A stretch of DNA of 52,803 bases from an uncultured Actinomycetes bacterium (GTDB taxonomy: Bacteria; Actinomycetota; Coriobacteriia; Coriobacteriales; Atopobiaceae): the NCBI GenBank assembly GCA_900313905.1, contig OMTG01000172.1:1-52803 (forward strand), written 5' to 3'. Of this stretch, positions 8,307 to 26,278 are shown piece after piece; within the stretch, counting starts at the first letter, position 1; the number at the start of each line of letters is the position of its first letter. Under the pieces are notes generated by a model. The model saw only the letters and a list, made by a program, of their open reading frames with translations, did no database searches and was not told the DNA's origin. The position numbers and the translations under genes were made by a program.

Positions 8307-8308
8307 CC

Positions 8309-8635
8309 GCTTGCACCGTCGATGTCCCGGCGCGGGCGACGCTCCAAGCGATTGGAGATAAGCCTATGGACAATGTCCTCGAGATTATGGGCGCCCTCGC
8401 GCTCGTTGCGAGCATCGCAAAGGCCATAACTGACATCGTCAGGGAGGTCAATGAGATGAGCAAGGAGTTTCGGCACCGAAAGGGATGATGCTCAAATAAT
8501 GGAAGGAGCCCGGTGGCCACCGGGCTCCTGACATCGTTACACCAGCGTCGCCCGGCGCACCTTTACTGGCGGGCATCGCGGTGCACCTCTATTGTACCCC
8601 CTGCAGGGGCTCCCGGAACAGCAATCCCGAAGATC
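8309..8635 (+). repeat. Imperfect repeat, copy 1 (left flank of the FtsK-like operon)
   Basis: This block is related along most of its length to the block at 14180-14460. Shared segments in order are: the stretch around CGATGTCCCG and GCGGGCGA, the small peptide sequence around CTCGCGCTCGT, a 24-base GC-rich palindrome (arms GGAGCCCGGTGG and CCACCGGGCTCC, 8505-8528, perfect here), and a tail with GCATCGCGGTGCACC and TGCAGGG. Copy 1 has about 34 extra bases between the palindrome and the tail. The palindrome lies just after the peptide stop codon and could act as a terminator, although no T tract follows. Confidence 0.8.
8366..8488 (+). CDS. Small hydrophobic peptide, possible toxin-like (hypothetical)
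   Basis: A 40-residue frame starting MDNVLEIMGALALVASIAKA, with GGAG eight bases before the ATG. It has an acidic start, a hydrophobic helix at about residues 8-25, and a strongly charged tail ending HRKG. Size and layout resemble single-helix membrane peptides such as those of type I toxin-antitoxin loci, but no family is recognised. A related sequence exists at about 14232-14350, where the position of this start codon reads TAG. The conserved frame across two copies and the ribosome binding site favour real translation; function is unknown. Confidence 0.45.
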   Translation: MDNVLEIMGALALVASIAKAITDIVREVNEMSKEFRHRKG

Positions 8636-8669: not shown

Positions 8670-8850
8670 TGTTCGCTATCGCGGGCGATGAAGCTGGAAA
8701 AGATGGAGCCCGGTGGCGACCGGGCTCCGAGATTGGAGTGCGCCTACGGTGTCCGTCCTCGGATTTTGCGGACACCGCGGAGCATCTCTATTCTACCTTC
8801 TGCAGCGGCTCCCAGCACAGGAAGTCCGACGATAGAGGTGTCCGAGACCT
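8670..8850 (+). repeat. Imperfect repeat, short copy 2
   Basis: A shortened relative of copies 1 and 3. It keeps GCGGGCGATGA, the palindrome (8705-8728, one central mismatch, exactly 200 bases after the copy 1 palindrome) and a tail with ATCTCTATTCTACC and TGCAGCGGCTCC, but has no peptide frame. It lies 130-150 bases downstream of the stop codon of the J-domain-like gene, so its palindrome could end the FtsK-like operon. Confidence 0.65.
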
Positions 8851-8857
8851 CCAGAGC

Positions 8858-10213
8858 TCATGCTTCCTCGCTATTGCTCCGGTCATAGCCATACGACCTC
8901 AGCCATTCATCATAGCGGCCGCTGAGAAACATGCCGATGCCCAGCGCGGCCCACCTGAGCACAAGGAAGACCAGCCAAGGACCTCCTGTCTGCGTAGCTA
9001 TATAGGGGAACGTGACCACGCCGACAAGGCCGCCTCCAAGCGCCTTGACGATAAGAAAGAACTTCAGGCTCCCATAGAGACCTCTGTCTGCATCGCCTCG
9101 CAGTCCGGCGATGAAGAACACAGCCGCTATCGCCAAGCTGCATGCTATGCTCGCCGTTTCTGCTTCGGGATCGGAATGTCCGCTGCTATGGATGCTGGTG
9201 ATGAGGAAAAAGCACATAACGGCAATGATCCTGCCCACTATCTTGATGGCGCAGACTCCCCTATCCATATTGCGTGCGTGCTTCGCGCTCCTCTGCCGCT
9301 CCTCTTCGGCCTTCTTTCGTGCCTCTTCCTCAGCCTTCCTGCGCTCCTCCTCGGCCTTCAGGTATGCGGCCCGCTGCTCCTCCTGCAGCCTCTCTTCCTC
9401 CCTCTTCCGTGCGATATAGGCCTCCTGCGCTTCGGCCGACGTCTTGACAGTCAGCGCCACCTCGTTTGTGGGGTCGCATTCGAGGGCTTGTCCTGCAAGC
9501 TCTTTCGCCTTGTGCACGTCAAGAGGAATCCGCCGGAGATAGCTCTTGGCGAGAAGACCGAGGGCCTGGGACTTGCTCTTGTCGTCCTTCCTGCCTTCGG
9601 CCAGCTCTTTGGCCGTCTCGTAGTCACGCCGCGCCTCGGCGATCACGTCACGCTTCTCTCCCCACCGGGAGCCCGCTGACTTCTCGAAGATCTGCGCCCT
9701 GCAGATGCGGCTTGCAGGCCCATCGTCCAGCAGGATGGCCTGGTTGGCACACGTGATGGCCTCGTCGAACTGACCATCGGCATTTCTGCAGCTCTGCTCG
9801 ACGGCGAAGACCGTCGCCGCCAGAAGATAGGCATCGACCGCACGCTCGTCCGAGCGCCTGAGGTAGGTGAGCATCTCTCGTGCGGCACCGGCAGCGAGGT
9901 CATATTCGCCGGCATCTGCGTAACCGGACGCCCGCCGATACCACTCCTTCACGGACTGGAGGCGCGTCTCCTCCGGGCTGGGGCCACTCGTCCGTATGCC
10001 AAGCTTCTCATCGTACTCATCGCGCGCGCTCTCGGATGAGAAGGCTTCCCTGGCCCGGCTGATGAGGCTCGCGGCATCCGCCGCCTCATATTCGGTGAGG
10101 GTCCCCATGCCGATCTTCTGCATGAGGTCCTGGTCCAGAGCGTCAATCTTTGCCTTGATCTCATCCAGGCTGGCCGTCTGGTCGACACCCAGCTCCTCGT
10201 AGAGGTCTTCCAT
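8858..10213 (-). CDS. J-domain-like/TPR/coiled-coil membrane protein of the FtsK-like operon
   Basis: A 451-residue protein with four regions. Residues 1-72 resemble a DnaJ J-domain (YEELGVDQTASLDEIKAKI, then AREAFSSESARDEYDEKLG), but the HPD tripeptide needed to stimulate DnaK is absent. Residues about 85-265 are helical repeats of TPR type (YADAGEYDLAAGAAREML, ELAGQALECDPTNEVAL). Residues about 266-315 are a charged Glu/Arg/Lys coiled coil. Residues about 321-431 hold three or four hydrophobic segments, so the protein is membrane-anchored at its C-terminus. AAGGGAG precedes the ATG. It is the last gene of the six-gene operon and the only one with membrane segments, so it may provide the membrane link for the ATPase. 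Function not known. Confidence 0.75.
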   Translation of the reverse strand: MEDLYEELGVDQTASLDEIKAKIDALDQDLMQKIGMGTLTEYEAADAASLISRAREAFSSESARDEYDEKLGIRTSGPSPEETRLQSVKEWYRRASGYADAGEYDLAAGAAREMLTYLRRSDERAVDAYLLAATVFAVEQSCRNADGQFDEAITCANQAILLDDGPASRICRAQIFEKSAGSRWGEKRDVIAEARRDYETAKELAEGRKDDKSKSQALGLLAKSYLRRIPLDVHKAKELAGQALECDPTNEVALTVKTSAEAQEAYIARKREEERLQEEQRAAYLKAEEERRKAEEEARKKAEEERQRSAKHARNMDRGVCAIKIVGRIIAVMCFFLITSIHSSGHSDPEAETASIACSLAIAAVFFIAGLRGDADRGLYGSLKFFLIVKALGGGLVGVVTFPYIATQTGGPWLVFLVLRWAALGIGMFLSGRYDEWLRSYGYDRSNSEEA

Positions 10214-10261
10214 GAATCTCCCTTCTCGGCGCGTCCCGCCCTGCCGTGCAGGACGGTCCCA

Positions 10262-10519
10262 TCATCCCCTGATCGTATCCTGGTATTGATGGAGACACCT
10301 TGCCAGGTCCCTCATGGAGTCGATAGCATCGCGCAGGGAGAGACGCGCCTGCTGGACATCTTCGACTGCCTGCTCTCCCGTCCGGTTCCCCCTGACCAGC
10401 TCGGCCAGCTCCCGCTCCTCATCTCCGATGGTCTGCTCTGAGCTTGCGCAGGCATCGACCATCTCATTGGAATACTGCTCCATCTCGGATACCTGGCCCA
10501 AAAGCTCCTCTATCGGCAT
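10262..10519 (-). CDS. Small helical protein 4 of the FtsK-like operon (WXG100-sized)
   Basis: An 85-residue acidic, fully helical-looking protein (MPIEELLGQVSEMEQYSNEM at the start, DSMRDLARCLHQYQDTIRG at the end) without signal peptide or membrane segment. Length and predicted helical character recall WXG100/ESAT-6 proteins, but there is no W-x-G turn. A Cys occurs in each half. The upstream sequence GAGAGGATAGAAGGAT supplies a ribosome binding site. It follows the previous small gene by 48 bases in the operon. Not recognised as a named family; the relation to WXG100 proteins rests on size and context only. Confidence 0.65.
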   Translation of the reverse strand: MPIEELLGQVSEMEQYSNEMVDACASSEQTIGDEERELAELVRGNRTGEQAVEDVQQARLSLRDAIDSMRDLARCLHQYQDTIRG

Positions 10520-10567
10520 ATCCTTCTATCCTCTCTGCTCGTTCCTGCTCTCCGAGTCCTGCAGCGA

Positions 10568-10828
10568 TCAGGCCTGCGCCTCGTCGATGTAATCCTCTAG
10601 GCCCACTGTGGCCTCGCGGGCCTGGCCTGTGGCCGAATCGGCGCAATGGAGATAGCTCTCGAGATCGTCTATCAGCCACTGTCCTGCCTGCTGGTCGCCA
10701 AAGAGGCTCCTTGCCTTCCGGTCCATCGCCTCCACGTCATCTCCGTCCCGGACGATATCCTGCTCCAGACTCTCGATCTCAGAGGAGATGGCAGCCAGGC
10801 CGTTCACGAGGCTTGCAATGTCAGCCAT
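10568..10828 (-). CDS. Small helical protein 3 of the FtsK-like operon (WXG100-sized)
   Basis: An 86-residue acidic helical protein. It starts MADIASLVNGLAAISSEIES and has a central stretch FGDQQAGQWLIDDLESYL, where G-Q-W sits near the middle, the place of the turn in WXG100 proteins. The start codon overlaps the upstream stop codon by one base (TGATG), and GGAGG lies about eight bases ahead, so translation is probably coupled. The shared element DDLESY also occurs in the preceding small protein (IDDLESYVGG), a sign that these two derive from a common ancestor. Function unknown. Confidence 0.68.
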   Translation of the reverse strand: MADIASLVNGLAAISSEIESLEQDIVRDGDDVEAMDRKARSLFGDQQAGQWLIDDLESYLHCADSATGQAREATVGLEDYIDEAQA

Positions 10829-11124
10829 CAGAATCCGCCTCCCATCATGCCATCCACATCGGAATCCGGCTCTTCGACGTCGAGCTCTTCCGCTGCGGCC
10901 GCTGCACGGCTCAGGAATCCGACGGCCGACTCGATCTCCTGCCTGATGTTCCTGCAGGATTCGATGGCACGCTGCGCGCTGGCGCTTGGGCTTCCGCCGA
11001 CATAGGATTCGAGATCGTCGATGATCCTGTCAATCTGGCCCAGCCTGCCGCGGGCCGCCGTAAGGGCATTCCTGATGCCGTAGATCAGGTCGAGGCGCGC
11101 CCGTTCCTTTTCGCTGTCGATCAT
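10828..11124 (-). CDS. Small helical protein 2 of the FtsK-like operon (WXG100-sized)
   Basis: A 98-residue protein, helical and mostly acidic, starting MIDSEKERARLDLIYGIRNA, with IDDLESYVGGSPSAS in the centre and a flexible tail EEPDSDVDGMMGGGF. The tail of Asp, Gly and Met residues is unusual and could be an exposed signal, by analogy with the C-terminal signals of WXG100 substrates; this is a guess. GAGGAG stands nine bases before the ATG. It is 11 bases downstream of the first small gene and overlaps the next by one base. Confidence 0.68.
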   Translation of the reverse strand: MIDSEKERARLDLIYGIRNALTAARGRLGQIDRIIDDLESYVGGSPSASAQRAIESCRNIRQEIESAVGFLSRAAAAAEELDVEEPDSDVDGMMGGGF

Positions 11125-11135
11125 GGACGCGCTCC

Positions 11136-11396
11136 TCAGAGCTGGATCTGGATCCTGGAGAGGGAGTCCTTCGCGACCTCGAGGCTGTCGATGGCCTTCT
11201 GGACGCTCTGCTGCGTAGCCACGATTCTGTCGTTCATTTCCTCGTCCACGCCTGCCGCGCCTCCCTGGAGCGCAGCTTGGACCTGCTCCTGGAGCTCCTG
11301 CAACCTGCTCAGGTAGGTATCCAGGATCTGCTCTTCCGTCTCCACCGACCGGATGCTGCTGCTGATCGCACCAATCAGCTCTGTCACCATTGACAT
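11136..11396 (-). CDS. Small helical protein 1 of the FtsK-like operon (WXG100-sized)
   Basis: An 86-residue helical protein, MSMVTELIGAISSSIRSVET at the start. Its two amphipathic halves are separated by QGGAAGVDEE around residues 44-53, so a helical hairpin is likely. AAAGGG precedes the ATG by seven bases. The spacing from the ATPase gene is only 31 bases. In classical type VII systems small helical-hairpin proteins encoded beside the FtsK-like ATPase are its substrates or partners; whether that holds here is inference. Confidence 0.68.
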   Translation of the reverse strand: MSMVTELIGAISSSIRSVETEEQILDTYLSRLQELQEQVQAALQGGAAGVDEEMNDRIVATQQSVQKAIDSLEVAKDSLSRIQIQL

Positions 11397-11427
11397 GGGA
11401 TCGCCCTTTCTCTTGGAGCCATCAGAT

Positions 11428-13881
11428 TCATCGCTGCTTGCCCATGAAGCTCACGCACGTCTCTGCATCCTCCATCCTGATTGGGGCGAAGGGCACGAAC
11501 GTGCATTCATGGTCCATCTCCACCTCATCGGAGATGAGCGCCCGGTTGTCCTGCGGCGCCCACCGCACATAAGGGTTGGTGAGGCCCTTCACCGAACGCT
11601 CGGATATCCTCAGGAAGACCCTTGTGTTGAAGGCACTCAGGCCATCCGATCCGAATGCCCCCAGGGAGCGCTCGAAGGCATTCTCCTTGGTCCACCAGCC
11701 GATGAAGTGGATGCCGAGGGAGGGGCCCTTCTCCACGAGCTCCTTGAGCGGGCTCTGCCTGCCCTCGAAGGTCCAGCGGTCCATGAAGGCAGCAAAGACA
11801 TAGGTGCGCCGGTTCTGGGACGCTGCCGCCAGATCTGCGATCGTCTTTGCAAAATCTGCTGGAGCGATATCCTCGATCTGGCAGCCGCATGCCGCCATCG
11901 CCTTGCTGAAGGCCGGATGCCGCACGCTGTAAGCCTCCCTATCCGGGCTGAAGTCGCAGAAGAGGAACCGCTCATCGGATGCAGGATGCTGCAGTGCAAG
12001 CGAGACCGCCACGCTCTGGAGCATGCCTTGCGCATTGTTGCATCCATGGTCCGGGCTGCCCAGGATCGCGATGTTGCGTCCCGGCTCATCGGGAAGCGGA
12101 ATCGCCACCTCGGACTGGGGAACGGAGATGTGCTGGCCGAGGAATGCGGCAGGGACCACCGTCTTCTGCCCCCGTGCAGCGATGCTGGCAAGAGAAGAGG
12201 AGACGTATGCCCTGCGGTTGCGCTCGAAGACATAGGGCGCAGGATGCGCATCGCCGTCGAACACCCACCATTTCCGTCTGAGCGGCTTCAGGAAGCTCTC
12301 ATCCGCATAGGCGATCACGGTCTTCTGGTTCTGGGACGGCTCGCCGTAGTCCAGGTTCACGATCGCCTCGCGGGGGCGCAGGAATGCCGCCGCAGGATTG
12401 CTGAGCGAGAGCGTCTCCTGGGACTCCCGCACGGAATTCTTGAGGGCGATCCTGATGGGGATCTGGCTGAAGATGTTGTCACGGTGCTGCGTGAACTCGA
12501 CATTGCCGGACAGGGTCTGGGAGGCAAGGATGAAGTGGATGCCGGCAGCCCTGAAGAGCCGCACGGACTTCTCCAGGAGATCGGCTGCCTGCTCCGCAGA
12601 CTCCCGCGATCCCTCGAACATCATCTGGAACTCATCAATCACGATGAGGATGCGGGGCATCCGCTCATGCGTCTTGAGCCTGAACTCACGGATGCTTCTG
12701 ACATCGTTTCTCTTCAGCACCTCCATGCGCTGCCGGTATATCCTGAAGAGCGACTCCAGGACAGCGATGCCGAAGGGGATGTCGCTCTCAAGGCCCAGAG
12801 CGCGGGCATGCGGCAGATATTCCATCTGGCCGATATTGGCATAGGGCTTGAGCGAGACGCCCTCCTTGAAGTCAAGCATGTAGAGCTCGAGCTCATCAGG
12901 CGAATACCGCTCGCAGAGGCTATGGATGATCACGGAGATGAGGTTCGACTTGCCCTGCCCGACCGCACCGGTGATCACGGCATTGTGCCGCTGGTTCAGC
13001 TCATCGCCGATCGTGACCGACATATCATTGACACCACATTTGCCGATCGTGAACGTGAGGCCATCTATGCTGCTCTCGGTCCACGGCTTGCGGAAATCCT
13101 GGATGGACTCCATGGTGATGACAGGCATCTCCTGGTTCATGACGGAAGCCATGTATGAGGAGCAGTAGCTGATGATGGATTCGACAGGAAGATCTGGCAG
13201 CAGGGCCTGCGCCGCTTCGTTTCCTGCTTTGTGCTCGAGGTTCCACTGGGTCACCATCCCGCCCTTGGCGCTCAGAAGCTTTGTCTGCGTCTGAGGAGTG
13301 AAGAAATACCATGGCAGAAGGCTTTCTCCCCCATCCGAGCGTTTGGCGCTGACCTTCGAGCCAGAGACGATCACGAACGAGATGCCGGCAGCGGGGCCTG
13401 CACGGAAGAGGATCCTGAGCTCTTCGCGCATCTCGGAGGAAAGCCTGCTCATCTCCGCAGAGATCACCACGAGCCGATAGCCTTCGACCGGACGTCCGAC
13501 CGTCTCCCTGAACTCGACGAGCGAGCCCGCCCTTCCTTGGATAACGTTCTGGACATCCAGGATCTCCTGCTTCAGATAGCCGAGGTAGTCGGAGAGCCCT
13601 TTTGCGGAGCCGATGAAGGTGAGCTGGCGTGGCTCCCCCTGCGAGAGCTGCGCATAGGGGGCGAAGACGCCTGAGAGGTTGCTGTCATAGGCATCGATGC
13701 AGAGCTGTCCTGGCGCGGTGCCCGCAAGGGCGGAAAGGATCACGTACCGGACGAGCTTCATGGTATCGGCGTCGTATCCATTCTCGATCCAGATGTTCCC
13801 ATGGCCGATGAAGGGGATGGAGATTCTGCCTCTGTCGTCCCCGATTTCAAGCTTCTCGCATGTCTGAAGCAGATCTGCCAT
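11428..13881 (-). CDS. FtsK/SpoIIIE (EccC/EssC-like) ATPase without membrane anchor
   Basis: An 817-residue protein starting at the ATG at 13881 (GGAG seven bases upstream); a longer frame to 13956 would run through the operator. Three FtsK-like modules can be read. The first (about residues 1-260) lacks a P-loop but keeps the late strands (RLVVISAEMS, FRAGPAAGISFVIVSG). The second has an intact Walker A GAVGQGKSN (about 305-313), LDFKEGVS, Walker B ILIVIDEFQ (about 411-418) and FRAAGIHFILASQTLSGN. The third (about 575 to the end) has a degenerate P-loop GSPDHGCNN. This is the three-module plan of EccC/EssC, the motor of type VII secretion, but there is no N-terminal membrane segment and the active site lies in the middle module. 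It is the first gene of the six-gene operon. Confidence 0.85.
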   Translation of the reverse strand: MADLLQTCEKLEIGDDRGRISIPFIGHGNIWIENGYDADTMKLVRYVILSALAGTAPGQLCIDAYDSNLSGVFAPYAQLSQGEPRQLTFIGSAKGLSDYLGYLKQEILDVQNVIQGRAGSLVEFRETVGRPVEGYRLVVISAEMSRLSSEMREELRILFRAGPAAGISFVIVSGSKVSAKRSDGGESLLPWYFFTPQTQTKLLSAKGGMVTQWNLEHKAGNEAAQALLPDLPVESIISYCSSYMASVMNQEMPVITMESIQDFRKPWTESSIDGLTFTIGKCGVNDMSVTIGDELNQRHNAVITGAVGQGKSNLISVIIHSLCERYSPDELELYMLDFKEGVSLKPYANIGQMEYLPHARALGLESDIPFGIAVLESLFRIYRQRMEVLKRNDVRSIREFRLKTHERMPRILIVIDEFQMMFEGSRESAEQAADLLEKSVRLFRAAGIHFILASQTLSGNVEFTQHRDNIFSQIPIRIALKNSVRESQETLSLSNPAAAFLRPREAIVNLDYGEPSQNQKTVIAYADESFLKPLRRKWWVFDGDAHPAPYVFERNRRAYVSSSLASIAARGQKTVVPAAFLGQHISVPQSEVAIPLPDEPGRNIAILGSPDHGCNNAQGMLQSVAVSLALQHPASDERFLFCDFSPDREAYSVRHPAFSKAMAACGCQIEDIAPADFAKTIADLAAASQNRRTYVFAAFMDRWTFEGRQSPLKELVEKGPSLGIHFIGWWTKENAFERSLGAFGSDGLSAFNTRVFLRISERSVKGLTNPYVRWAPQDNRALISDEVEMDHECTFVPFAPIRMEDAETCVSFMGKQR

Positions 13882-14179
13882 GCCCTGGCTCCATCCTGAA
13901 AACAAGCTGCATCGGTACTTTAAGGATTCTATCAGTATTCTTAACCGATAGCCCATTGTTAACAGAATGCCGCAAGGATTTTCAGGCAGCTGCTCGAGAA
14001 TCTTGGCAGGCCAAGTCCCACGGAGCTGGCCGGAAGGCTGTCGGGAGAGATGGTCCAGAAGGGGCGCTCATCCTGTACGGGCTGACACTTCCCCGGAGTA
14101 CACCGAGCCTTTCCAAGGCCAGCCAGAAGCCTTGTTGGCTGCAGCCCCGCGCTGCCAGAAGCGTCTGGCACCATCCCGC
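13882..14179. other. Intergenic stretch upstream of the FtsK-like operon
   Basis: About 300 bases. It holds the dyad at 13920-13944 and otherwise no frame I would support. An alternative, longer start of the ATPase at 13956 would lie inside it. Confidence 0.4.
13920..13944 (-). promoter_or_regulatory. Dyad operator candidate of the FtsK-like operon
   Basis: On the minus strand TTAAGAATACT and AGAATCCTTAA are inverted around GAT, with nine of eleven bases pairing. It is AT-rich in a GC-rich setting and lies 39 bases before the ATPase ATG, where a promoter is expected. It could be a repressor site overlapping a TAGAAT -10 box. No regulator gene sits in the operon itself. Confidence 0.45.
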
Positions 14180-14460
14180 CTGCACCACCGATGTCCCGAT
14201 GCGGGCGATACTCCAGCAGCCAGGCGAGCAGCCTTAGGACAATGCCCTCGACAATATGGGCACCCTCGCGCTCGTCGCGAACATCGTAAAGGTCATGGCT
14301 GGCATTGCCAGGGAGACCACCGAGATGAGGAAGAGGTTGCCGAAGAGGATGATGTCCGGATCATGGAAGGAGCCCGGCGGCGACCGGGCTCCTGGCATCG
14401 CGGTGCACCCTTATTGCATCCATTGCAGGGACTCCAAGACAGCATCCAGCTCCTGCCGAG
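14180..14460 (+). repeat. Imperfect repeat, copy 3 (right flank of the FtsK-like operon)
   Basis: Related to copy 1 (8309-8635) in the same orientation, with the same order of elements: CGATGTCCCG and GCGGGCGA, peptide region, GC-rich palindrome (14369-14392, arms GGAGCCCGGCGG and CGACCGGGCTCC) and a tail GCATCGCGGTGCACCC. In the peptide region the bases matching the copy 1 ATG read TAG. A shorter frame from ATG 14256 (MGTLALVANIVKVMAGIARE) stays open for 79 codons through the palindrome. The palindrome lies 100 bases downstream of the TIR gene stop and may end its transcript. Confidence 0.78.
14232..14350 (+). pseudogene. Decayed or altered copy of the small hydrophobic peptide gene
   Basis: In the frame of the 8366 peptide this reads stop, then DNALDNMGTLALVANIVKVM and on to charged residues, against MDNVLEIMGALALVASIAKA in copy 1. 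The ATG has become TAG and the GGAG ribosome binding site is also lost. The hydrophobic core is conserved, so the frame was once coding. Initiation at the internal ATG 14256 would give a longer, different C-terminus, which I think unlikely. Confidence 0.45.
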
Positions 14461-14491: not shown

Positions 14492-15493
14492 CTAGCAGAC
14501 AGTCACATCCTTGATCTCGAATGCGCCCTCGGAGCTCTTGAGGTCGTCGGGATGGATGACGAAGCAGATCTCGTTGACCGCTTCCAGCCTCCTGCTCCTC
14601 ACAGAGGACAGATCGACAACGAGCTTGTTGATGCCACCTGCAAGCTTGAAGCGGACGGGATCCAGGAGCATCTCCTTGTTCGGGCCAAACTTCAGCTCGA
14701 CCGAAATGCCGCGCAGGGAATCCGTGAAGTTGTCCAGCGTCAGCCAGATCTTTGGATAGTGCGAGAACATATGGGCGACATCCAGATCGAAGCCATCGAA
14801 GAAGTGCAGCACATAGCTGAAGAATGCAGGGCTCTGCACATGCTCCTTCCTGTCCGGATTCAGATTGAAGCTGGCCAGGATCTTCTTTCCATCTCTGGTC
14901 GCATGGAGCAGCTCTTCAGACGTCTTGTCCACGACGGCAAGATGCCTGTCATCACAATACGTGCCAAGCTTGTCGGCACCGCCGACAATATCCATCTTAT
15001 CGACGACGATCTGGCTGACTTCGGCGACGAAGGTGGAGACCCGCGCCTTTGTGGATGCAAGGCCGATATCGATGCCAAATCCCTCCAGAGACTTCAGAAC
15101 AGCAGCCGCGTCGACGAGCGAGTACACCTCCAGCGCAGACAGCGAAGTTCCCAGGAGCGCATCTCCAAGAGCGAGCGGAGGAAGGTAGTAGGGCTTGATG
15201 TAGCCTTCTCCCCTCCCGAAGCGGTAAAGATACAGCGCCGCTCCGCCAAGCTCCATCACGCAGAACCTGCTTGCATAGTATTCCTTGGTCAGCAGCGGAA
15301 TGAAGACCGCACTGTCATCGAGATTCCGGTAGATATCGTCGACGTAGTCTCTCCCGATCTCGATGGATCCTGGCGTGCTCGAGCAATATACCGTGTTCGT
15401 TTCCGAACCGGTCGTCGGACACCCCTCGATCAGCTCTTTGAGCTTCCCAGCTATCTCTGCATTTGCCGACGCGTGACTCAAGAAGATATGCAT
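14492..15493 (-). CDS. TIR-domain protein with C-terminal domain of unknown function
   Basis: A 333-residue protein. Residues 1-130 are a TIR domain: MHIFLSHASANAEIAGKLKE at the start, IEIGRDYVDDIYRNLDDSAV, and YYASRFCVMELGGAALYLY, where the Glu after Cys-Val-Met matches the catalytic Glu of NAD-cleaving TIR enzymes (S-x-x-C-x-x-E-L pattern). The remaining 200 residues look like a mixed alpha/beta sensor or binding domain of no recognised family. Bacterial TIR proteins commonly act as effectors in anti-phage defence. The gene stands alone between its own dyad and the repeat next to the FtsK-like operon, so a functional link with that operon is possible but unproven. Confidence 0.82.
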   Translation of the reverse strand: MHIFLSHASANAEIAGKLKELIEGCPTTGSETNTVYCSSTPGSIEIGRDYVDDIYRNLDDSAVFIPLLTKEYYASRFCVMELGGAALYLYRFGRGEGYIKPYYLPPLALGDALLGTSLSALEVYSLVDAAAVLKSLEGFGIDIGLASTKARVSTFVAEVSQIVVDKMDIVGGADKLGTYCDDRHLAVVDKTSEELLHATRDGKKILASFNLNPDRKEHVQSPAFFSYVLHFFDGFDLDVAHMFSHYPKIWLTLDNFTDSLRGISVELKFGPNKEMLLDPVRFKLAGGINKLVVDLSSVRSRRLEAVNEICFVIHPDDLKSSEGAFEIKDVTVC

Positions 15494-15749: not shown

Positions 15750-15960
15750 TGCCATGAGATCGGACGCCTGCGCAAGGTGATGCTCCATCGTCCCGGACCT
15801 GAGCTTGACCGGATGCTCCCCTCGCCGACATGCTTTTCGGGGATACGCCCTGCCTGGCAGAGGCTCAGAAGGAGCATGATGCATTCGCGAAGACCCTGAC
15901 CGATGCCGGCGTGGAGGTCCTCTGCCTCACCAGCCTCAGGGAGCCGGCCTTCCGCATCCC
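15750..15960 (+). pseudogene. Remnant of the 5' end of an arginine deiminase gene
   Basis: From ATGAGATCGGACGCCTGCG onward this matches the first about 200 bases of arcA at 25086-25296 at high identity; the translated core IGRLRKVMLHRPGPELDR is the same. About seven bases are missing relative to arcA (after CTCCCCTCG, where arcA has CAGCTCGGC), which breaks the frame. After about 15960 similarity stops. It is therefore a truncated, frameshifted copy, not a working gene. Confidence 0.85.
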
Positions 15961-16014
15961 CTTGCAGTGCTCGCAGAGCAGGAGTCCCAAGCATCTGAGT
16001 ACCTGCTTCGTTCG

Positions 16015-17004
16015 TCATCCAATAGTGTCAAGCGTATATTTGAGGTCGCTGCCGAACTGGTAGATGTTCCGGGTGTACATGGCACGGCCAAACCAATCGA
16101 TCTTTCGGTCATGCCAGTCAGGATGGGCAAGGATATTGTCCGCAGCATCCCTGATGTAATTCAGGGTCACGGGGTGGAGATCGAAAGTCCCATGCCCGGG
16201 AAAGACACCGGAAATCTCCTCTCCATGTCGCTCGACGATATCATTGATATGGTCACGAAGCGACCTGATGGTGCAGAGCTCAGGATGCGGCTCGCCCTCC
16301 TCTCTGAGAGCGCTCGTCGCATCTCCCAGGAAGAAGCATCCGGTCTCGAAATCGAAGATTCCCGACTCTCCTGCCGTATGACCCGAGACAAGGTTCACCT
16401 CCACCTGATACTGCCCGCCATCAGCCTTCTTGCCCAGATCGAAACGGTACCCTGACGGAACGCCGACAATCTCATATGGCCTGAAAGGCATGAGATCTGC
16501 AGGATCGAAATCGGACGCGCTTGGTTTGCCATCTGCATCAAGCAGAAAGCCCGCCATATACTCCGGCGTCATCTGGCGCTCCAGCAGCTCTGCGTCATAT
16601 TCATTGATATAGACCCTATCGAAACAGACATTGCCCCCAATATGGTCGACATGGCGATGGGTATCGAAACAGACAGCCTCTTTTCCAGGCGCCAAGAATT
16701 CGCAGAGCTTCTTCAGATCGCCAAGGCCAAATGCCGTATCGATCAGAAGCGCGCGTTCGGGACCGATGATGAGATAGCTCCAGACATCGCCGCAGCCTGC
16801 CATGATGGAAGGATTGAAGAGCGCATAGGTATTGGGACGTACCTTGTAGCACTCCACGAAAGGATTGACCTCCGGATAGTATTCCTTGAGGTCGGAATGC
16901 TCACGGAGCACCTTCATGAAGGACCAGCGTGACACTTTCTCGTGCTCGGGCTTGAAATTATGGACGGGGATGCTGCTTTGTATCGGACGTGGATCGAGAT
17001 TCAT
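16015..17004 (-). CDS. MBL-fold metallo-hydrolase
   Basis: A 329-residue metallo-beta-lactamase-fold protein. The metal motif THRHVDHIGG (H-x-H-x-D-H) is present, with further ligands expected at VSGHTAGESG and in the segment FPGHGTFDLHPV. ALLIDTAFGLGDLKK precedes the motif as in most family members. AGGAG six bases before the ATG at 17004 sets the start; a longer frame to 17061 lacks a site. The fold covers many hydrolases and the substrate cannot be named. It is the last gene of a minus-strand run that includes HAD, Nif3-like and PTS genes. Confidence 0.82.
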   Translation of the reverse strand: MNLDPRPIQSSIPVHNFKPEHEKVSRWSFMKVLREHSDLKEYYPEVNPFVECYKVRPNTYALFNPSIMAGCGDVWSYLIIGPERALLIDTAFGLGDLKKLCEFLAPGKEAVCFDTHRHVDHIGGNVCFDRVYINEYDAELLERQMTPEYMAGFLLDADGKPSASDFDPADLMPFRPYEIVGVPSGYRFDLGKKADGGQYQVEVNLVSGHTAGESGIFDFETGCFFLGDATSALREEGEPHPELCTIRSLRDHINDIVERHGEEISGVFPGHGTFDLHPVTLNYIRDAADNILAHPDWHDRKIDWFGRAMYTRNIYQFGSDLKYTLDTIG

Positions 17005-25069: not shown

Positions 25070-26278
25070 ATGACACAGGTCTATTCAGAGATCGGACGTT
25101 TGCGCAAGGTGATGCTCCACCGTCCCGGACCTGAGCTTGACCGGGTGCTCCCTTCGCAGCTCGGCGACATGCTCTTCGAGGACACGCCCTATCTGGCAGA
25201 GGCCCAGAAGGAGCATGATGCGTTCGCGAAGATCCTGACCGACGCCGGCGTGGAGGTCCTCTATCTCACCGATCTGATGGAATCGGCCTTCCAGTCCCCG
25301 AAGGTCCGCTATGAGTTCGTGACCGAGTTCCTCGATGCCTCCCATATCACGAGCCCCGCGCTCGTCGAGAAGCTCGAGGACCTCTATCTGCGCATGGCAC
25401 CGAAGGAGCTTGTGCAGACCGCGCTCTCCGGCATCAGGACCGACGATCCCCGCCTTGCCGACATGACGTCGTTCGGCAACCTCGGTGCGAGGGAGGCGGT
25501 CTTTGCCGTGAAGCCCCTTCCGAACATCTACTTCATGCGCGACAACTCGATCTCGGTCGGCCACGATGTGATCTACTCCCACATGGAGAAGCGGGTCCGC
25601 AAGCGCGAGTCCATCATCCTGCGCTTCGTCCGCCGCTACGCCGAGGAGTTCAAGGACTCGAACGAGGAGGACCTCTACGACCTCTCGCTCCCCCAGAGGA
25701 TCGAGGGCGGCGATGTCCTCGTGCTCTCCGACCACTCGGTGATCATCGGCTGCTCCGAGCGCACGAGCCCCGTTGCAATCGAATACATCGCCCACAGCCT
25801 CTTCGAGAAGGGCTACGACGAGGTCTATGCCTTCGATATCGGCATGCACCGCGCTTCGATGCACCTCGATATCAGCCTCTCGATGGTGGATGTGGACACC
25901 TTCCTCTACAACCCCCTGATCGATGGGACGACCGAGATCTACCGCCTCTTCCCGAGCCCCACAGGCGTCGGCTATGACTACATCGGGAAGGACTGGCACG
26001 AGGCCCTGGCGCAGGCCACGAAGAACCCCGATGTCCGCCTCATCCCCTGCGGCGGCAAGGACGATCCGCTCGATGCGGAATGGGAGCTCTGGAACCTTGG
26101 CGCCAATGTCCTCACAATCCAGCCGGGCGAGGTCATCGGCTACGAGCGCACTCCCATCACGCTTGACCTCCTCGACAAAGCGGGCATCACGGTCCACACC
26201 TTCCCCTCGGGCGAGCTTTCCCGTGGCCGTGGCGGCACCCACTGCATGAGCATGCCGATCGAGCGCGACCTGCTCTGA
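25070..26278 (+). CDS. arcA: Arginine deiminase
   Basis: A 402-residue arginine deiminase, the usual length, converting arginine to citrulline and ammonia in the cytosol. Family motifs are SEIGRLRKVMLHRPGPELDR at the N-terminus, PNIYFMRDNSISVG (Asp for guanidinium binding), RIEGGDVLVLS, GMHRASMHLDISLS (catalytic His region) and the C-terminal GGTHCMSMPIERD with the nucleophilic Cys. GGAGG stands eight bases before the ATG. No arcB or arcC follows here; the next gene is convergent. A decayed 5' copy lies at 15750. Confidence 0.97.
   Translation: MTQVYSEIGRLRKVMLHRPGPELDRVLPSQLGDMLFEDTPYLAEAQKEHDAFAKILTDAGVEVLYLTDLMESAFQSPKVRYEFVTEFLDASHITSPALVEKLEDLYLRMAPKELVQTALSGIRTDDPRLADMTSFGNLGAREAVFAVKPLPNIYFMRDNSISVGHDVIYSHMEKRVRKRESIILRFVRRYAEEFKDSNEEDLYDLSLPQRIEGGDVLVLSDHSVIIGCSERTSPVAIEYIAHSLFEKGYDEVYAFDIGMHRASMHLDISLSMVDVDTFLYNPLIDGTTEIYRLFPSPTGVGYDYIGKDWHEALAQATKNPDVRLIPCGGKDDPLDAEWELWNLGANVLTIQPGEVIGYERTPITLDLLDKAGITVHTFPSGELSRGRGGTHCMSMPIERDLL

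What the first reader, a model, noticed from the sequence alone, without database searches (positions are those of the whole stretch)
8858..13881. Six-gene operon: FtsK/EccC-like ATPase, four WXG100-sized helical proteins, and an HPD-less J-domain/TPR membrane protein
Seen: a tightly packed minus-strand operon (gaps of 31, 11, -1, 48 and 48 bases). It encodes an ATPase with one intact FtsK Walker A/B pair, four 85-98 residue helical proteins without W-x-G, and a C-terminal membrane protein with a J-like N-terminus lacking HPD, TPR-like helices and a long coiled coil. Known: type VII secretion pairs an EccC/EssC ATPase with small helical-hairpin proteins. Inference: this is a divergent type VII-like or conflict apparatus in which the J/TPR protein replaces the missing membrane components. 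I know of no described system with this set.
Basis: partly seen in the sequence, partly recalled or inferred. Interest (0 to 1): 0.85.

Follow-up and report, generated by a model that had tools for sequence, protein, structure and literature searches.

The report
Type VII-like ATPase, hairpins, J/TPR protein
A six-gene bacterial operon pairs a motor enzyme of the type VII secretion kind with four small hairpin-like proteins and a membrane protein resembling a chaperone partner; in other bacteria the same set carries interchangeable toxin-like domains, so it is probably a stripped-down, untested relative of a known toxin-export machine.

Summary
The six genes are a real module: the J/TPR membrane gene lies beside the same ATPase in 11 loci, and two Actinomyces genomes carry ATPase, TPR/membrane protein and four small proteins in a row. 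The ATPase is EccC-like by profile. It has no membrane helix, and only its central P-loop site is intact. Small protein 1 is predicted as a helical hairpin (pLDDT 92), and all four carry hydrophobic-x-Gly at residues 41-46, where ESAT-6 has W-x-G; sequence homology to WXG100 could not be shown. In Actinomyces the fourth small gene carries unrelated C-terminal domains on a conserved N-terminus (one EndoU-like), the mark of polymorphic toxins. Four other relatives add Hsp70 and GrpE, which the window lacks. Best reading: a minimal type VII-like system in which small hairpins act as substrates or export partners, the ATPase pumps them, and the J/TPR protein docks it at the membrane. Export is inferred. 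The general kind (soluble ATPase with three FtsK domains, only the middle one active, plus WXG proteins) was described computationally in 2012; I found no description of the J/TPR-Hsp70-GrpE branch. New variant of a known kind.

The parts
11428..13881 (-). EccC-like FtsK/HerA ATPase, 817 aa, three FtsK-like units by alignment, soluble (no hydrophobic segment)
   Evidence: Pfam FtsK_SpoIIIE 1.7e-19; NCBIfam EccCa 4e-19; PDB profile best hit chain 4nh0 (FtsK/SpoIIIE, EccC type), then EccC5, ahead of FtsK translocases; no TM segment
12946..12969 (-). Walker A GAVGQGKS (residues 305-312), the only intact one
12625..12645 (-). Walker B IVIDEFQ (residues 413-419)
11136..11396 (-). small protein 1 (86 aa), helical hairpin H2-44/H48-85, L43-Q-G45 at the turn; orthologous to first small protein of Actinomyces, Rhodococcus and G055 loci
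   Evidence: AF2 pLDDT 92; BLASTP 2e-10 to L113_1 in a 29-sequence set
10828..11124 (-). small protein 2 (98 aa), with acidic/glycine tail; weakly matches third small protein (also tailed) of Actinomyces
   Evidence: BLASTP 0.001-0.005 in a 29-sequence set
10568..10828 (-). small protein 3 (86 aa), LFG at residues 42-44; no assigned orthologue, by elimination the counterpart of the fourth (toxin-carrying) position
10262..10519 (-). small protein 4 (85 aa), VRGNRTGEQAV; orthologous to second small protein of Actinomyces and G055
   Evidence: BLASTP 6e-8 to L113_2 in a 29-sequence set
8858..10213 (-). J-like/TPR/membrane protein, 451 aa: J-like residues 1-71 without HPD, TPR-like helices 80-246, long helix 251-344, hydrophobic segments 320-432
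   Evidence: Pfam TPR_2 7e-7, DnaJ 0.0039; AF2; Foldseek hits are TPR domains; hydropathy; BLASTP 1e-7 to L113 and 2e-8 to L037 homologues
13934..13962 (-). sigma-70-like promoter match upstream of the ATPase (TTAACA-17-AATACT)
   Evidence: consensus match only
8705..8728 (-). terminator-like hairpin downstream of the J/TPR gene
   Evidence: consensus match only

Best explanation
A minimal, type VII-like protein-translocation module. The soluble EccC-like ATPase (one active P-loop site between two degenerate ones) would assemble as a ring and engage small helical-hairpin proteins, which act as substrates or as export partners for a hairpin-toxin encoded at the fourth small-gene position in some relatives. 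The J-like/TPR protein, held in the membrane by its C-terminus, would dock the ATPase or receive cargo there and so do part of the work of the missing Ecc/Ess membrane subunits. In several relatives a dedicated Hsp70 and GrpE work with it; in the window and in Actinomyces those are gone. The window copy carries four solo hairpins and no toxin in the operon. Shown: gene set, domain content, conservation of the set, predicted fold of one hairpin, toxin-like fusions in relatives. Inferred: ring assembly, hairpin dimers, docking, export, antagonism.
For: ATPase nearest to EccC/EssC with only the central site intact in all 18 sequences examined. J/TPR/membrane gene adjacent to the ATPase in 11 loci: window, L032-L035, L037, L044, L060, L066, L113, L114. 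ATPase plus TPR/membrane gene plus four small genes in L113 and L114. Small proteins 1 and 4 have position-specific orthologues. Small protein 1 is a hairpin turning at L43-x-G45. All four window small proteins have hydrophobic-x-Gly at residues 41-46, shuffle product 7e-5, and 18 of 29 family members against 2.6 expected. Fourth-position fusions in Actinomyces: N-terminal 92 aa about 70% identical, C-termini unrelated; L033 C-terminus matches EndoU at 5.7e-5, just under Pfam's cut-off; L032 has a third C-terminus. A more distant relative, the Helicobacter plasmid locus L047, has a WXG100-like protein (4.6e-5), a WHH/colicin-DNase protein and a SUKH partner next to its ATPase. Hsp70, GrpE and J-like partners in L037, L044, L060 and an Hsp70 fragment plus GrpE-like gene in L066.
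Against: No conduit subunit (EccB/D/E, EssA/B, EsaA type) is recognisable in the operon, and the J/TPR protein has only one to four predicted membrane segments. The window lacks a toxin and an immunity gene, and no convincing orphan hairpin-toxin was found in its genome. Profile-profile comparison of the small proteins with true WXG100 proteins scored no better than rotated or reversed decoys, and structure matches are unspecific. Small protein 3 has no detectable orthologue. Nothing here tests secretion.
Confidence: 0.55

Rival explanations
1. Intracellular conflict or defence module: the ATPase/hairpin/J-TPR set assembles inside the cell in response to phage or stress and releases or activates effectors (here perhaps the neighbouring TIR protein; in relatives the fused nucleases) without export.
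For: No export conduit in the operon. More distant ATPase relatives sit with TerY-P triads, ubiquitin-like/JAB/E1-like genes and a CARF gene, settings that the CoCoNuT paper ties to defence (PMC11090510). A TIR gene lies upstream. Hsp70/GrpE partners in relatives fit a cytosolic role.
Against: The TIR protein has no homologue at E<=1e-10 in 148 other genomes of the class, so it does not travel with the module. Fourth-position fusions have the conserved-N/variable-C layout of exported polymorphic toxins. The conserved C-terminal hydrophobic segment places the J/TPR protein at a membrane.
Confidence: 0.25
2. Membrane-associated chaperone/quality-control machine: ATPase and hairpins act as a protein-remodelling device recruited by a divergent J protein, unrelated to toxin traffic.
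For: Hsp70, GrpE and a J/TPR protein are encoded next to the ATPase in four relatives.
Against: HPD, which J domains need to stimulate Hsp70 (established knowledge), is missing in every family member read, also where Hsp70 is present. Patchy distribution (4 of 396 phylum genomes at E<=1e-80) is unlike housekeeping. Toxin-like fusions in Actinomyces.
Confidence: 0.1
3. A DNA-handling FtsK/HerA system (plasmid or conflict related).
For: FtsK/SpoIIIE fold; SspH and mad8 matches of the ATPase domain; one relative is on a plasmid.
Against: EccC/EssC models and structures score well above FtsK translocases. No relaxase or nuclease in the operon.
Confidence: 0.05

Closest known systems
'Mobile' T7SS: YueA-like ATPase with three HerA/FtsK domains, only the middle one active, plus solo WXG proteins (Zhang et al. 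2012, PMC3482391; CoCoNuT-associated EssC-like ATPases, PMC11090510)
   Same: Soluble ATPase with three FtsK-like units and one active central site, next to small helical proteins; patchy distribution; nuclease/toxin-like partners in relatives
   Different: Here a J-like/TPR membrane protein (and Hsp70/GrpE in relatives) takes the place of TerY-P or other partners; four small proteins; no W-x-G; only a short N-terminus before the first FtsK-like unit, not a long coiled coil
Helicobacter pylori 'WXG100 secretion system' cluster: DnaK homologue, WXG100-family protein (HP0062, hairpin dimer with WRD in the bend), FtsK/SpoIIIE, HNH nuclease (PMC4978471, PMC3397514)
   Same: FtsK-type ATPase with a WXG-degenerate hairpin and an Hsp70 homologue (the last only in the window's relatives)
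   Different: The ATPase of the related Helicobacter plasmid locus L047 lies in another branch of the tree; it has a WXG100-like protein; no J/TPR membrane protein seen in L047
T7SSb with LXG or EsaD toxins and small helical export partners (EsxB/C/D, PMC10653861; dual targeting factors, PMC9600955)
   Same: Several small helical proteins encoded beside an EccC/EssC-type ATPase; in Actinomyces three of them precede a hairpin-toxin candidate
   Different: No FHA-EssC, EssA/B or EsaA in the operon; ATPase not membrane anchored; window lacks the toxin
T7SSa-T7SSj (Garrett et al. 2024, PMC11217815)
   Same: EccC/EssC-type ATPase plus small helical proteins
   Different: Those have a membrane-bound ATPase, WXG100 TsxA and mostly ubiquitin-like TsxB; the paper's text does not mention DnaJ or Hsp70, and a tetratricopeptide domain only in TsjD

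Membership tests
Type VII secretion system (EccC/EssC-WXG100) | EccC/EssC-type ATPase with tandem FtsK domains | tested here: met
   EccCa 4e-19, EssC 1e-18 (far below the equivalog cut-offs); best PDB matches are EccC-type chains
Type VII secretion system (EccC/EssC-WXG100) | ATPase anchored by N-terminal transmembrane helices | tested here: not met
   no hydrophobic segment in 817 aa
Type VII secretion system (EccC/EssC-WXG100) | WXG100 partner with W-x-G, recognised by profile | tested here: not met
   PF06013 only 0.017 for small protein 1, below cut-off, none for the others; none in the genome at E<=0.001; profile-profile score within decoy range
Type VII secretion system (EccC/EssC-WXG100) | small partners fold as helical hairpins | tested here: met
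   small protein 1 only: two helices, turn at 45-47, pLDDT 92; the other three were not folded
Type VII secretion system (EccC/EssC-WXG100) | membrane conduit subunits (EccB/D/E or EssA/EssB/EsaA) | tested here: inconclusive
   none among the operon's Pfam matches; EccB search of the genome empty but its control did not ring
Type VII secretion system (EccC/EssC-WXG100) | secretion of the small proteins | not testable with these tools
   needs culture fractionation
Mobile T7SS with YueA-like ATPase (PMC3482391) | three FtsK-like domains, only the middle one active | tested here: met
   single Walker A/B pair in the central unit; flanking units align within the family but lack it
Mobile T7SS with YueA-like ATPase (PMC3482391) | solo WXG-domain partner | tested here: inconclusive
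   hairpin with hydrophobic-x-Gly in the place of W-x-G; homology to WXG not shown
DnaJ co-chaperones | J domain with HPD motif | tested here: not met
   HPD absent in the window and in all family members read; Rhodococcus has only HPNPD; J-domain profile weak in the window (0.0039) but good in the Rhodococcus relative (1.3e-8)
Polymorphic toxin system | conserved N-terminus with variable toxin C-terminus and adjacent immunity gene | tested here: not met
   not in the window; the layout is met in Actinomyces relatives
T7SSa-T7SSj (PMC11217815) | subtype-specific parts (FHA, kinase, TsxB, mycosin, EsaA/TsdI) | tested here: not met
   none among Pfam/NCBIfam matches of the six proteins

The most novel reading that the evidence does not exclude
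A distinct branch of type VII-like translocation in which a soluble EccC-type ATPase is docked to the membrane by an HPD-less J/TPR protein and fed by a set of four hairpin partners, with an ancestral dedicated Hsp70/GrpE pair: a chaperone-coupled, conduit-poor T7SS, with the fourth hairpin as an exchangeable toxin carrier.
Probability: 0.3. Interest if true: 0.75.

Novelty: new variant of a known kind. Interest (0 to 1): 0.52.

Why it matters
It would show that EccC-type motors can work with an entirely different membrane partner and with a chaperone system, and would give a small, six-gene setting in which to test how T7SS motors recognise hairpins without the Ecc/Ess scaffold. The soluble 'middle-domain-only' ATPases have been known from sequence since 2012, and I found no experimental paper on them; this compact version makes the question testable.

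Tried and rejected
WXG100 homology by sequence: Pfam 0.017, PDB profile EsxA at E=0.34 behind many designed coiled coils, hhalign 14.5 against rotated decoys 11.0+-2.2 (max 14.8) and reversed decoys 19.3+-4.0: not shown. Fold searches of the hairpin: no match at E<=0.001; ESAT-6/EsxB-type chains are among the top 50 but so are SMC, ESCRT-III and seryl-tRNA synthetase hairpins: unspecific. Fold search of the J/TPR model returned TPR and other helical-repeat proteins; the J part was not folded alone. TIR gene as part of the module: rejected. Phage origin: no relative in viral contigs; phage hits were short ATPase-domain matches only. J/TPR protein on plasmids: only the Rhodococcus plasmid, and only with the Rhodococcus query. 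Foreign base composition: operon G+C 0.606 against 0.598 for the flanks, no sign. The Ter-systems paper of Anantharaman et al. 2012 is not held, so its content is known here only through citing papers.
Full report
Observation. The six ORFs are present at the stated coordinates, all on the minus strand and tightly packed (gaps 31, 11, -1, 48, 48). The window's genome (G000, 2.78 Mb) holds no second copy: the only other match is a 26% match over the motor domain, consistent with the housekeeping FtsK.

ATPase. Pfam finds FtsK_SpoIIIE (1.7e-19) at residues 295-458. NCBIfam finds EccCa (4e-19) and EssC (1e-18), both far below their equivalog cut-offs. A profile of the family against PDB ranks chain 4nh0 (an EccC-type FtsK/SpoIIIE protein) first (4e-35), followed by EccC5 and YukB, and FtsK DNA translocases only at 3e-14. 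Flanking units align through the family (residues about 20-170 and 580-800) but only the central one keeps Walker A/B; this holds for all 18 sequences examined. No membrane segment is predicted. This is the layout that Zhang et al. 2012 noted in a table footnote as 'mobile versions of T7SS' (PMC3482391) and that the CoCoNuT paper describes as EssC-like with only D2 active and no transmembrane helices (PMC11090510).

Recurrence. Searches of genomes and plasmids gave a clade of relatives. The J-like/TPR/membrane gene stands next to the ATPase in 11 loci: the window, Actinomyces L032-L035, L113 and L114 (genomes of the same genus), genomes G055 (L037), G311 (L060), G576 (L066), and a Rhodococcus plasmid (L044) (gene calls outside L044 come from a home-made caller and ORF lists; in L037, L044, L060 and L066 a GrpE-like gene lies between the two). 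In L034 an insertion sequence interrupts the J gene; in L114 the frame read holds only the TPR/membrane part. In the other loci the order is J-ATPase-hairpins; in the window the J gene has moved to the end. L113 has exactly J, ATPase and four small genes (85, 86, 104, 95 aa), L114 the same with 84, 87, 95, 111 aa. In L037, L044 and L060 a complete Hsp70 and GrpE precede the ATPase; L066 shows the end of an Hsp70 gene and a GrpE-like gene at its contig edge. A maximum-likelihood tree groups the window with G055 and Actinomyces (100/99), then Rhodococcus and G311 (100/99). Relatives without a J gene seen (L036, L067, L115, L116, L038) are more distant. The system is rare: 4 of 396 phylum genomes at E<=1e-80, 11 of 398 class genomes at 1e-40, most of those being other branches.

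Small proteins. Within a 29-sequence set, small protein 1 matches the first small gene of Actinomyces, Rhodococcus and G055 (best 2e-10), and small protein 4 the second small gene (best 6e-8); small protein 2 weakly matches the third, which like it has a C-terminal tail (0.001-0.005); small protein 3 matches nothing. AlphaFold2 gives small protein 1 as a clean hairpin, helices 2-44 and 48-85, pLDDT 92. The turn contains L43-Q-G45; the other three have a hydrophobic residue, any residue, then Gly at 41-46. From my own knowledge of ESAT-6, its W-x-G occupies residues 43-45. Shuffling gives 0.07-0.13 per protein, product 7e-5, and 18 of 29 family members carry it against 2.6 expected; these are related sequences, so the figures describe a conserved feature and are not independent probabilities. 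Homology to WXG100 could not be shown: decoys with kept periodicity score as well or better, and fold matches are unspecific. 'Works like' is therefore better supported than 'is a'.

Toxin-like fusions in relatives. In L033, L034, L035 and L032 the fourth position holds a longer protein. Its first 92 residues are about 70% identical between L033 and L034 while the C-termini do not align. L033's C-terminus matches EndoU nuclease at 5.7e-5, just under the gathering cut-off, L034/L035 share a different one, and L032 has a third. L034/L035 have a following 193-aa gene in the place of an immunity gene, of unknown family. The more distant Helicobacter plasmid locus L047 has a WXG100-like 89-aa protein (4.6e-5), a WHH/colicin-DNase protein and a SUKH partner. 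No toxin is encoded in the window operon, and in the whole genome only the four known hairpins match the family strongly.

J/TPR protein. The window's own DnaJ match is weak (0.0039, residues 3-22), but homologues reach 1.3e-8 (Rhodococcus), 1.6e-6 (L066) and 1.9e-5 (L060), and the window protein matches the L037 and L113 homologues at 2e-8 and 1e-7 over the J/TPR part. The model has J-like helices 4-8, 16-36, 41-57, 61-70, TPR-like helices to 246, and a long helix (mean pLDDT 72, poor beyond residue 315). HPD is absent in all members read, including those beside Hsp70; Rhodococcus has HPNPD. A C-terminal hydrophobic segment is present in all seven family members scanned.

Mechanism. The parts fit a type VII-like motor that handles hairpins, with the J/TPR protein as its membrane partner. 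The analogy is with T7SSb, where three small proteins bind the transport domain of the nuclease EsaD and are needed for its export (PMC10653861); Actinomyces has three small proteins before the hairpin fusion. Export, docking and ring assembly are inference. The strongest objection is the lack of a conduit, which keeps the intracellular rival at 0.25.

Novelty. The kind is known from sequence. None of the papers found describes the J/TPR-Hsp70-GrpE branch: searches combining these terms found none, and the paper on the ten T7SS subtypes does not mention DnaJ or Hsp70 (PMC11217815). Only open-licence papers were searched, and the 2012 Ter-systems paper was not readable.

Noticed in passing
8307-8613 and 14176-14435 (+): A direct repeat of about 260-300 bp (77-84% identical pieces) flanks the operon; each copy encodes a short hydrophobic peptide (MDNVLEIMGALALVASIAKAI.. 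and ..MGTLALVANIVKVMAGIARE..) followed by a strong GC hairpin, like a type I toxin-antitoxin unit. Three further copies lie on other contigs (89%, 85%, 69%).
   Followed up: partly
14492-15493 (-): TIR-domain protein (Pfam TIR_2 2.7e-5, PADLOC spbK 9e-9) upstream of the operon, lower G+C (0.556); no homologue at 1e-10 in 148 other genomes of the class.
   Followed up: partly
15756-16060 (+): 5' fragment of an arginine-deiminase-like gene, 86-93% identical to the start of the intact gene at 25070-26278: a partial duplication.
   Followed up: no
L039, L041, L062, L063: A related ATPase in other genomes of the order stands in a conserved block with JAB-like and E1/ThiF-like genes, a short ubiquitin-like candidate and EWND/EWDD hairpins (Sel1-type repeat genes in L039 and L041): a ubiquitin-like-associated branch of the same motor family.
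   Followed up: no
L042 3127-14216: Another branch with kinase, vWA and PP2C genes (TerY-P triad) next to the ATPase and an EWND hairpin.
   Followed up: no
L115 4103-10258, L116 7845-13542: Two Actinomyces genomes carry a further ATPase branch with a coiled-coil/membrane protein of about 185 aa and a 576-582 aa partner, no J gene.
   Followed up: no
L034 6406-7530: An insertion sequence (transposase) interrupts the J/TPR gene of Actinomyces oris CCUG 34288 while the rest of the module is intact.
   Followed up: no
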